Part shown: one piece after another, positions 55,232 to 57,461 of the stretch
How positions within the stretch are numbered: position 1 is the stretch's first letter
Layout of the letters: each line of letters opens with the position of its first letter
Assembly: GCA_020850355.1 (NCBI GenBank)
Contig: JADZEX010000028.1
Coordinates: forward strand, 1 to 64,000
DNA length: 64,000 bases
Direction: 5' to 3'
Source of the DNA: Fimbriimonadaceae bacterium
Lineage (GTDB): Bacteria > Armatimonadota > UBA10988
Translations under genes and position numbers: made by a program
The notes under the pieces: generated by a model
Told to the model about the DNA's origin: nothing
What the model saw: the letters and a program-made list of their open reading frames with translations, nothing else
Database searches by the model: none

Positions 55232-55690
55232 CTACTCCGCGACCGCCCACCCCCACGCGCCGCAAACCGCCAGCAGCTCCCCCTCGGCGCCGAGCTGGTG
55301 GTTGACGTGCTGCACCACCGCCCCGGCCTCGTCGAGCACGGTCACCTCGGTCCGCGGGCCGCCGGGGAAGACGTACTCGTAGAGCACCGTCACCCGCCCC
55401 GACCCCTGCTGCCCCGTCGCCGGCTGCTGCGTGGAAACGACCTGGTCGGCGAGGTTGTAGACGGTCTCCCAGGTGCTCCCCAGCGCGTCGGTGACGAGAG
55501 TCCGGTTGCCCCGCCCATCGTACCGGAAGTACGTGCGGTGGCCGAGATTGTCCTCCACATACAACGCCTGCCCGACGGCGGCGGCCTGCGACCAGGCGAC
55601 GTCGGTTTCGTACTCGTAGGTGGTCACGAGGGTGGTGTCGGAGCTGATGGCGGGGTGGGTGTGATGGTCGGTGGCGGGAGCAGTAGTGAT
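55232..55690 (-). pseudogene. rhs core fragment (YD repeats)
   Basis: The frame encodes YD-repeat sequence such as 'YFRYDGRGNRTLVTDALGST' and 'WETVYNLADQVVSTQQP', the core-shell pattern of Rhs proteins. It has no start with a ribosome site and an in-frame TAG lies just upstream (about 55733). It ends after 'LLAVCGAWGWAVAE' with no DPxGL boundary or toxin tip. It belongs to a more N-terminal part of an Rhs core yet lies downstream of the rhs C-terminal cassette, so the locus is rearranged. Confidence 0.65.
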
Positions 55691-55801
55691 TGCTACTGGG
55701 CGGCCCCGCCAGCATCCCCGTTGGCGCCTCTAGTTTCCCCTGCCTTCCCAGAGTGGAGCATCGGAGTAGCGCAATCAGAGTGACGTTCCTAGTTGCGCAC
55801 G

Positions 55802-56059
55802 CTATCTGAACCGAGTCCCATCGGAGGCTTGCTGAAACCTATATTGGCGCTGGCGCAGGCAGTTCTGAAGAAGCACGACCACCGCACCTGCGAGCACTTG
55901 GGCGATGACAAAGCACACTGGCAGTCCCATCCACCACTGACCGTCGGCCGAAGCGCCCGACGGTGCCCTGAACACCAGCACGAGAATTACGATCATGCCT
56001 ACCACAAGGCCTGTGATTGCAGCCGTGTGCCGAGCCATCACAACATCGCGCAGTACCAT
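55802..56059 (-). CDS. Two-helix membrane protein, candidate immunity protein for the Rhs-PLA2 tip
   Basis: This 85-residue protein has helices at about 12-28 and 45-63 and a polar Arg/Gln-rich tail (RQRQYRFQQ). ATG 56059 is preceded by a strong GGAGGTG. It starts 54 bases after the stop of the Rhs C-terminal gene, the usual location for the cognate immunity gene. A membrane protein would suit protection against a phospholipase. No family recognised; function is inferred from context. Confidence 0.6.
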   Translation of the reverse strand: MVLRDVVMARHTAAITGLVVGMIVILVLVFRAPSGASADGQWWMGLPVCFVIAQVLAGAVVVLLQNCLRQRQYRFQQASDGTRFR

Positions 56060-56112
56060 ACGGCACCTCCAAAGCTCCGCTCGTCCCCTACCGCACTCGG
56101 CCCTACATCGGG

Positions 56113-57060
56113 TTAGTCTAACACAGGTGGCACACGGAGACCGATGAGCTTGCAAGCATCGACTCCGAAGACAGGGAACCCGCAGCTAAACATGATCCAA
56201 ACCTCAGCGGCATAGGCCAGGCAGTCGAAGCTTGTGCAGTACGAGCCAGCCACACATCGACACAGCCGGTAGTGGCACTGCAAGCACTCTGGGCGCGCGA
56301 GCATATAGAACATGCAGCCGCTATTCGTGAGACACTCATCGTGACTCTTGCAACAAGCATCAACTTGATCGACAGGCATACCGGGGCCAGAGTTGTACAA
56401 ACCGCACCAGTTTCCGTGGTTGGCTGGCCACAGCCCCCTTGGATCACTTCGACTGGTAGTTCCGCTTGCGACATACCCGTAGACATTCACCCCGCCCTCA
56501 TACCCAATCGGATCCCGATTCAGGAACCTCCCCACCCCCGGCCCATAGTACCGGTACGCCAGCGCGACCAGGCCGGTCTCTTCGTCCGTGTAGTACCCAT
56601 ACTTCGCCCGGTACCCGCGGGGATCAACATCGCCGCTGGTGAGCTCGTTGCCCCAGGCGTCGAAGAGGCGGTTGGCGAGGACGTCGCCGGCGGCGTCGAG
56701 GAGGTGGACCGCGTCGCCGAGGGGGTCGAACTGGTATTGCACCTCGCCGCGACTGAGCAATCCCGCCGCGCCGAAGGTGCTGGCGGCGACCAGGTCACCC
56801 GCCGCGTCCAACTCACAGACCACATTGATGCCGTCGTAGAGGAAGTAGGTGCGGGTGGCGCCTTCCTTCCAGGCCCGCAAGCCATCACCGCGGTAGGCGG
56901 CTTCGAGGGCGGTGCCGTGGGCGGTCATGCGGTTCTCGACATCCCAGGTCAAGGCCGTGCCGCCGAAGGTGGTCGGGTTGCCATTGCCATCGTAGACATA
57001 GGTGCCCGGGCCGGTGAGCGGGTTGGCTGCGTGGCTGGCGGTTGTGGCCGGACTCCCCAT
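56113..57060 (-). CDS. Orphan Rhs C-terminal module with phospholipase A2 tip
   Basis: 315 residues are visible. Residues 15-205 are Rhs core: 'YVYDGNGNPTTFGGTALTWD', 'ENRMTAHG', and the conserved end 'RYYGPGVGRFLNRDPIGYEG'. The processing boundary DPRGL is at 206-210. The tip (211-315) has the secreted phospholipase A2 signature: Ca-loop-like 'WCGLYNSGPG' (218-227) and 'DACCKSHDECL' with catalytic His240-Asp241, and 13 Cys in total. PLA2 cleaves phospholipid sn-2 esters, so it would be membrane-damaging. The N-terminus is truncated: a TAG lies three codons upstream of the ATG and no ribosome site is seen. The tip is about 57% GC locally, against about 67% in the core (60-base counts). Confidence 0.8.
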   Translation of the reverse strand: MGSPATTASHAANPLTGPGTYVYDGNGNPTTFGGTALTWDVENRMTAHGTALEAAYRGDGLRAWKEGATRTYFLYDGINVVCELDAAGDLVAASTFGAAGLLSRGEVQYQFDPLGDAVHLLDAAGDVLANRLFDAWGNELTSGDVDPRGYRAKYGYYTDEETGLVALAYRYYGPGVGRFLNRDPIGYEGGVNVYGYVASGTTSRSDPRGLWPANHGNWCGLYNSGPGMPVDQVDACCKSHDECLTNSGCMFYMLARPECLQCHYRLCRCVAGSYCTSFDCLAYAAEVWIMFSCGFPVFGVDACKLIGLRVPPVLD

Positions 57061-57461
57061 GTTGCGCGCCTATCCCGAATCACTCTGCCTGATGGGAGGG
57101 CGGGTGTCAAGAGCACTTGTCCCGCGCCTGTCATGGTTTCGCAAGACGGGCCGTGGTCGACGCCGGTGGCGGCCAGGCCACGAGCCCAGGGCGTTGCCCT
57201 GGGCTGGCTTGGGTCGCCCCTTCGGGGCTTCCGGATGGCGCAGGCCTCCGCACCAGCGCTGGATCGGGCTGGCTGGACGTGGTGGCGTCGAAAACGGGTC
57301 AGGACCGGCGGAGTACCGTCAGTCCAGACCCGTGTTTCGCCGCCGGTCCGCCCTGACATGGTAGCCCGCGTCGGCCGTCGCGAGGGTTGCCGCGACCCGG
57401 CGGCCCGCCGCGACCCGGCGATGCTGGCGCGCTTGGGTGGGGTGTGGCCAGGCCGCTGACC
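57061..57461. other. Non-coding stretch with REP-like element between rhs and truncated hydrolase
   Basis: I see no credible gene in these 401 bases. They contain tandem hairpins (57183-57228). Short open frames here lack ribosome sites and family motifs. The region probably marks the breakpoint between the rhs cassette and the hydrolase remnant. Confidence 0.6.
57183..57228. repeat. REP-like pair of palindromes
   Basis: AGCCCAGGGC (57183-57192) pairs with GCCCTGGGCT (57196-57205) around GTT. Eleven bases later GCCCC/GGGGC (57216-57228) pairs around TTC. The arrangement and sequence resemble dispersed REP-type elements of planctomycete-like genomes; only one copy is in this window. Confidence 0.5.

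What the first reader, a model, noticed from the sequence alone, without database searches (positions are those of the whole stretch)
56113..57060. Rhs C-terminal tip with a phospholipase A2 catalytic signature
Downstream of DPRGL the tip has a Ca-loop-like WCGLYNSGPG and DACCKSHDECL, where the CCxxHD motif is the PLA2 active site. Phospholipase tips are less usual than nuclease or deaminase tips on Rhs proteins. The lower local GC fits an acquired tip.
Basis: partly seen in the sequence, partly recalled or inferred. Interest (0 to 1): 0.72.

Follow-up and report, generated by a model that had tools for sequence, protein, structure and literature searches.

The report
Rhs fragment with phospholipase A2 tip
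A truncated bacterial Rhs gene ends in a small cysteine-rich domain built like plant and venom phospholipase A2, next to a likely membrane immunity gene; such tips are known in outline, but this type recurs across the bacterial phylum Armatimonadota with a candidate protecting partner.

Summary
Observation confirmed. ORF 56113-57060 (-) is a 315-aa orphan Rhs fragment: an Rhs-associated core (58.9 bits, cutoff 32.5) followed by a 105-aa tip with His240-Asp241. The tip is PLA2-like: PF00068 E 2.8e-5, but below its curated cutoff. A profile of 32 related tips finds rice PLA2 at 5e-10, and rice PLA2 is the best structural neighbour (Z 9.1, 86 residues, 2.6 A). Ca-loop Cys-Gly and the His-Asp dyad are invariant in all 32. 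The Asp99 position reads His, as in some plant enzymes. The tip lies in a low-GC block (55662-56470) without DNA match to the genome's other Rhs copies. The block also holds an 85-aa two-TM gene with a good ribosome site (55802-56059), the likely immunity gene. At least 27 of 291 phylum genomes have such a tip. Small multi-TM ORFs follow 12 of 21 Rhs-core PLA2 tips and 6 of 38 other Rhs tips. This copy is 5'-truncated, so expression and delivery are unproven; activity and immunity are untested. PLA2 tips on RHS toxins were catalogued in 2012 without an immunity partner. Verdict: a new variant of a known kind.

The parts
56113..57060 (-). orphan Rhs fragment ORF, 315 aa (3' part of core plus PLA2 tip)
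56431..56661 (-). Rhs-associated core domain (TIGR03696, residues 134-210)
   Evidence: E 5.2e-16, 58.9 bits, cutoff 32.5
56116..56430 (-). PLA2-like tip, residues 211-315, 13 Cys
56380..56418 (-). Ca-loop-like HGNWCGLYNSGPG
   Evidence: Cys12 and Gly13 of the aligned tip invariant in 32 tips
56332..56361 (-). active-site motif DACCKSHDEC with His240-Asp241
   Evidence: His and Asp invariant in 32 tips; plant sPLA2 motif DACCxxHDxC
56065..56070 (-). Shine-Dalgarno-like GGAGGT ahead of the candidate immunity gene
   Evidence: read by eye from the sequence
55802..56059 (-). candidate immunity gene, 85 aa, two predicted TM helices, DGQ...LP motif
55662..56470 (-). variable block (tip + candidate immunity gene) without blastn match in the other own-genome Rhs stretches
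   Evidence: alignment breakpoints; GC 0.588
55266..55661 (-). YD-repeat fragment of an internal part of full-length Rhs, shared by other copies
57066..57179 (-). leader shared with truncated copies C49, C33, C23, C81; holds promoter-like TTGACA-17-CAGAGT (57105-57110 / 57082-57087)
   Evidence: promoter-like string by eye

Best explanation
This is an orphan toxin-immunity cassette of a polymorphic Rhs system in an Armatimonadota bacterium. The toxin is a Ca-dependent, disulfide-stabilised phospholipase A2 of the plant/animal sPLA2 type. Expected mechanism: a full-length Rhs carrier exports or displays the tip, and the tip is released outside the cytoplasm, where Ca2+ and oxidising conditions are available. 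His240, with Asp241 and the Ca loop, activates water and cleaves the sn-2 ester of phospholipids in a neighbour's membrane, giving lysolipid and loss of barrier. The two-TM protein encoded 53 nt downstream sits in the producer's membrane and blocks the enzyme. Shown here: tip homology and fold, invariance of the catalytic residues, the variable block, the TM gene and its association with PLA2 tips. Inferred: catalysis, export, target and immunity function. This copy lacks the carrier's N-terminal part and is probably a store for recombination, or silent, rather than itself delivered (see first rival, which does not exclude this reading).
For: PLA2 profile and fold. Catalytic residues invariant in 32 tips. 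Rhs core. Seven other own-genome core copies at 83-87% identity; six of them have a readable tip, all different from one another. C49, the second PLA2 tip of the genome (37-38% identical over the tip), also has a two-TM ORF next to it. Small (55-150 aa) >=2-TM ORF next to PLA2 tips: 16 of 33 against 6 of 38 control tips, p 0.0044; newly found set alone 11 of 16, p 2.8e-4; carriers with a detected Rhs core only, 12 of 21, p 0.0024. In the window 1 of 176 ORFs of 60-130 aa has two strong TM peaks, and it is this one; 0 of 192 in nine other own-genome stretches, C49 not among them. Four of five full-length Rhs ORFs fetched from relatives begin with signal-peptide-like sequence, by eye (L122-L125; L126 unclear).
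Against: Single-sequence Pfam score below the curated cutoff. No Asp at the Asp99 position. The window's TM protein has no convincing homologue in 291 genomes (best other E 6.7e-4), and profile scores to the other TM neighbours do not exceed block-shuffled decoys. The ORF is 5'-truncated; its ATG is not shared with sister copies C49, C33 and C23. C49's PLA2 tip is separated from its core by an in-frame stop. The own-genome 5' Rhs part found (C103) shows no obvious signal peptide by eye. 17 of 33 PLA2 loci have no small multi-TM neighbour by the test used. PLA2 loci share ancestry and controls come from other genomes, so the p-values are optimistic.
Confidence: 0.7

Rival explanations
1. The cassette is a dead remnant: a PLA2-tip fragment left by deletion of the carrier and repeat-driven rearrangement, neither expressed nor delivered, although the domain is a PLA2 by descent. 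(Overlaps with the best explanation; it differs on whether this copy does anything.)
For: Only 315 aa; same truncation junction in C49, C33 and C23 and a different one in C81; C49 has an in-frame stop; the C23 copy runs into transposase-like sequence, by eye; start ATG not conserved.
Against: Frame open through core and tip; catalytic residues intact; Shine-Dalgarno-like site on the next gene; conserved promoter-like leader. A paper titled 'Selection of Orphan Rhs Toxin Expression in Evolved Salmonella enterica Serovar Typhimurium' (PMC3967940, listing and abstract start only) suggests that orphan tips can be put to use.
Confidence: 0.45
2. The tip is an active PLA2 aimed at eukaryotic grazers or other non-kin rather than at bacterial competitors.
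For: Closest solved structures are plant and venom PLA2s.
Against: A TM gene enriched next to such tips suggests that the producer needs protection, and tips vary among core copies as in kin-competition systems.
Confidence: 0.15
3. The tip has the PLA2 fold but is not catalytic and perturbs membranes without hydrolysis.
For: Non-catalytic PLA2 homologues exist in venoms (PMC3958778 calls two of three new PLA2s very likely inactive, abstract start in listing); the Asp99 position is His.
Against: His48/Asp49 equivalents and Ca-loop Cys-Gly invariant in 32 tips; plant group XIA enzymes carry His or Asn at the Asp99 position (PMC6635587, passages).
Confidence: 0.08
4. The resemblance is a coincidence of a Cys-rich tip; other tips of this system are also Cys-rich.
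For: Five other tips in the genome hold 3-9 Cys.
Against: Profile, fold and motif evidence agree.
Confidence: 0.03

Closest known systems
Tox-PLA2 of polymorphic toxins (Zhang et al. 2012, PMC3482391, passages read)
   Same: PLA2-fold toxin domain in polymorphic toxins, RHS among the listed repeats, T2SS listed as export, Chloroflexi among many listed phyla
   Different: The listed signature (DxC[ST], CxxHxxxYxN; PDB 1kp4) is not literally met: the window reads DACC and CKSHDECLTN; the immunity column is empty there
Plant secretory PLA2 (rice PLA2 2wg7-2wg9)
   Same: Best structural neighbour and top hit of the 32-tip profile; DACCxxHDxC motif; non-Asp residue at the Asp99 position
   Different: Stand-alone plant enzyme; 22-25% identity in the structural alignments
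Orphan Rhs tips of enterobacteria
   Same: Displaced rhs gene lacking the conserved delivery part (PMC7043789, abstract start in listing)
   Different: Other phylum; no T6SS shown here; lies between unrelated genes, not beside a full-length rhs, in this draft assembly
Immunities of Lipocone toxins (PMC12419801, passages)
   Different: Different toxin fold; no sequence link tested

Membership tests
Rhs proteins (TIGR03696 core) | Rhs-associated core above curated cutoff | tested here: met
   58.9 bits, cutoff 32.5
Rhs proteins (TIGR03696 core) | full-length YD-repeat carrier with export or delivery N-terminus | tested here: not met
   315-aa fragment in an open frame of 318 codons. Filed as an orphan fragment, not a complete Rhs
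Polymorphic toxin cassette | conserved core with different tips in different copies | tested here: met
   core 83-87% identical in seven other copies; DNA homology stops at about 56471 and resumes at about 55661
Polymorphic toxin cassette | cognate immunity gene that protects | not testable with these tools
   a candidate gene is present; function untested
Pfam PF00068 Phospholip_A2_1 | score above gathering cutoff | tested here: not met
   25-25.6 bits, cutoff 32.1. Called PLA2-like, not a PF00068 member
sPLA2 superfamily | Ca-loop Cys-Gly and Cys-x-x-His-Asp | tested here: met
   present in the window and invariant in 32 tips; profile hit to rice PLA2 5.1e-10
sPLA2 superfamily | PLA2 fold | tested here: met
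   predicted model only; rice PLA2 top in both models, Z 8.9 and 9.1; Foldseek E 0.01 and 0.1
sPLA2 superfamily | Asp99 of animal enzymes | tested here: not met
   His in the window (alignment); plant enzymes also lack it
sPLA2 superfamily | Ca-dependent sn-2 hydrolysis | not testable with these tools
   needs an assay
Tox-PLA2 (Zhang 2012) | listed motif DxC[ST], CxxHxxxYxN | tested here: not met
   window reads DACC and CKSHDECLTN (motif)

The most novel reading that the evidence does not exclude
Armatimonadota run an extracytoplasmic Rhs system with disulfide-rich tips in which sPLA2-type toxins are neutralised in the membrane by small 2-3-TM proteins (some sharing a DGQ-x(4-6)-[LIV]P motif), a first immunity class for PLA2 tips. 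A second PLA2 lineage on divergent YD carriers is paired with membrane-anchored or lipoprotein beta-propellers.
Probability: 0.35. Interest if true: 0.6.

Novelty: new variant of a known kind. Interest (0 to 1): 0.42.

Why it matters
PLA2 tips were catalogued in polymorphic toxins in 2012 with an empty immunity column. The window and its relatives give 33 loci, 16 of them with a small multi-TM candidate partner that can be tested, and show the plant/venom type of PLA2 as an exchangeable bacterial tip in a little-studied phylum.

Tried and rejected
Beta-propeller immunity as the general partner: a propeller profile hits the neighbour of 7 PLA2 loci (leave-one-out E < 1e-3, 7 of the 10 tested; L057's neighbour is cut by a contig end and was not tested) and 3 of 38 controls. 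In the 16 new loci the best was L174 at E 0.002, not counted. Over all 33 loci, untested ones counted as no, 7/33 vs 3/38 gives p 0.17. Six of the 7 lie on carriers without a detected Rhs core, whereas controls were chosen by Rhs core, so the link is confounded with carrier class and does not concern the window; three of those six ORFs run to a contig edge and may only be incomplete. I first thought a propeller immunity would be a first, as the 2012 paper says none had been found; a later paper names Tsi1 and XAC2610 as beta-propeller-fold immunities (PMC10933484, one passage), so I dropped that claim.

Homology among the TM neighbours: not above shuffled decoys. The DGQ...P motif was noticed after the fact; among 126 distinct >=2-TM ORFs in all DNA fetched by then, only window, L047, L176 and L178 carry it. 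TM counts are plain Kyte-Doolittle; the 2.4 cut was chosen after seeing the protein. In one search the window ORF was scored from its first start (TTG, 117 aa), not from the ATG that gives 85 aa.

Rows dropped: G014 (five stops; no CCxxHD printed for its locus), leaving 17 of 18 rows; L059-L061, fetched because their match ran into the tip, gave no CCxxHD; L098 and L107 of 40 control loci had no core frame. Control L114 ends at its contig end before any neighbour and was counted as a miss. L011 and L047 were not scanned for a Rhs core because of a stop. Control rows were picked by hand from the listed part by a fixed rule (match ends at query 208-222, no stop, at most 2 per genome, first 40). 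Rhs core upstream at E <= 0.01, some below the curated cutoff, was found in 20 of 30 scanned loci plus the window. Searches of genomes scored only part of the first-look candidates (for example 17 of 73 in G000), so counts of genomes are lower bounds.

The second structure job (32 rows) raised pLDDT but the Foldseek E-value got worse (0.1 against 0.01); rice PLA2 stays top in both.

Full report
Check of the observation. ORF 56113-57060 (-) is open, 315 aa. Residues 134-210 are the Rhs-associated core (TIGR03696, E 5.2e-16, 58.9 bits, cutoff 32.5). The tip carries HGNWCGLYNSGPG and DACCKSHDEC with His240-Asp241. The GC dip is real: tip 0.556, block 0.588, window 0.71; 3 of 1264 stretches of equal length are as low, all three at the block itself.

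Is it a PLA2? The single sequence gives PF00068 at E 2.8e-5 (25 bits), below the curated 32.1, so it is not a PF00068 member by Pfam's own rule. Against the PDB, single-sequence hits start with PLA2s at E 5e-4. Sixteen related tips as a profile reach 1.8e-9 (krait) and 4e-9 (rice); 11 of these 16 match PF00068 on their own at E <= 0.1. Of ten newer, more divergent tips, six match PF00068 at E <= 0.1 and four do not. Thirty-two tips as a profile reach 5.1e-10, rice first. In the 32-row alignment the invariant columns are the Ca-loop Cys and Gly, Asp27, Cys30, His33, Asp34 and one further Cys. Two models were made: pLDDT 76.8 (16 rows) and 81.9 (32 rows), each with a helix over the HD motif and further helices behind it. 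Rice PLA2 is the best neighbour in both: Z 8.9, 88 residues, 3.4 A and Z 9.1, 86 residues, 2.6 A. The tool warns that such Z values are not decisive for helical models. Foldseek E-values are weak (0.01 and 0.1), but its first 25 and 23 rows are PLA2s. A plant sPLA2 review gives the motif DACCxxHDxC and says that the animal Asp99 is replaced by His or Asn in plant group XIA (PMC6635587, passages); the window has His there (alignment).

Where it sits. The window is contig C29 of a 6.67 Mb draft genome in 117 contigs. Several hits in its phylum match named Armatimonadetes or Fimbriimonadaceae contigs by length, so the host is in Armatimonadota; its own name is not known. The genome has 12 matches to the ORF including itself, seven of them other core copies at 83-87% identity. 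DNA homology between the window and those copies stops at about 56471 and resumes at about 55661. The 0.8-kb block between holds the tip and the next gene. Six of the other copies have a readable tip, all different from one another. One of them, C49, also has a PLA2 tip (38% over the tip), cut off from its core by an in-frame stop. Behind the block lies a piece of an internal YD region of the full-length gene. Ahead of the ORF, 57066-57179 is covered's list by C49, C33, C23 and C81, all truncated Rhs copies; one C91 match overlaps about 20 bases of it, and 40 of 238 first-look candidates were scored. It holds a promoter-like TTGACA-17-CAGAGT string (by eye). C49, C33 and C23 share the window's truncation point and C81 has another; the window's start ATG is not present in C49, C33 and C23. 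So the unit is an orphan cassette, and whether it is expressed is open.

Candidate immunity. Fifty-three nt after the Rhs stop, behind a GGAGGT, an 85-aa ORF encodes two strong hydrophobic helices. It is the only one of 176 ORFs of 60-130 aa in the window with two such peaks, and there were 0 of 192 in nine other own-genome stretches (cut chosen after seeing it; C49 not included). It has no convincing homologue in 291 genomes. Support comes from context. A 2-row profile matched 16 of 291 genomes of the phylum, giving 17 usable loci. A 16-row profile matched 27 of 291 genomes with 33 matches, adding 16 loci. Small >=2-TM ORFs follow 5 of the first 17 and 11 of the 16 new ones, 16 of 33 in all, against 6 of 38 other Rhs tips scored the same way (Fisher p 0.0044; new set alone 2.8e-4). 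Among PLA2 loci with a detected Rhs core it is 12 of 21 against 6 of 38, p 0.0024. Loci share ancestry, so these p-values are optimistic. Sequence homology among the TM proteins is not above shuffled decoys. A DGQ-x(4-6)-[LIV]P motif, noticed after the fact, is shared by four of them and by no other of 126 multi-TM ORFs.

A second PLA2 lineage. Seven PLA2 loci are followed by a TolB/PD40-like propeller gene of about 300 aa with an N-terminal hydrophobic or lipobox-like start (lipobox by eye). Six of these seven have carriers without a detected Rhs core. Over all loci the excess over controls is not significant (7/33 vs 3/38, p 0.17). It is a lead for those carriers, not for the window.

Mechanism. 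Four of five full-length Rhs ORFs fetched from relatives begin with signal-peptide-like sequence, by eye. Many tips of this system are Cys-rich and many neighbours have an N-terminal hydrophobic segment, though not all. I infer an extracytoplasmic system in which PLA2 acts where Ca2+ and disulfides are available, with protection at the membrane. For the window's own genome no export signal was found (C103 start). Catalysis, delivery, target and immunity are inferred.

What is known. PLA2 tips on polymorphic toxins with RHS repeats were listed in 2012, with an empty immunity column (PMC3482391, Table 2 passages). My term searches for Rhs with phospholipase A2 and polymorphic toxin, Tox-PLA2, YD repeat with phospholipase A2 and immunity protein with propeller and phospholipase listed no paper that, from title and abstract start, describes an immunity for such tips. 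One search lists a T6SS phospholipase effector paper (PMC11470151), which I did not read; a broader search showed 25 of 167 papers. The library lacks most subscription journals. Immunities of the Lipocone toxins are described as all TM proteins or lipoproteins (PMC12419801, passages). I therefore rate the finding a new variant of a known kind.

Noticed in passing
window 57181-57396: Dispersed REP-like intergenic repeat with GC palindromes; 61 matches (self included) to 57060-57461 in the own genome, closely spaced on C95 and C85.
   Followed up: partly
L016 4140-5242 (C23 end): A further Rhs core copy running into transposase-like sequence at a contig end (family by eye).
   Followed up: no
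L121 4056-12461 (C69): A 2802-codon open frame with YD repeats in the own genome, unlike the multi-copy Rhs.
   Followed up: no
L049, L050, L051, L053, L054, L055, L058: PLA2-tip carriers, six of seven without a detected Rhs core, followed by PD40-like propeller genes.
   Followed up: partly
L175, L180: PLA2 tips followed by a one-TM protein with ankyrin-like repeats (by eye).
   Followed up: no
L063, L065, L068-L072: Short 88-105-codon CCxxHD PLA2-like ORFs in Mesobacillus, Bacillus and Lysinibacillus, not on Rhs carriers.
   Followed up: no
L076 871-1302: Ramlibacter MAG with a DPTGL-PLA2 tip, so the tip type is not limited to Armatimonadota.
   Followed up: no
one search hits such as G006:C42 and G048:C43: Several Rhs core fragments within a few kb of one another, suggesting arrays of displaced tips.
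   Followed up: no
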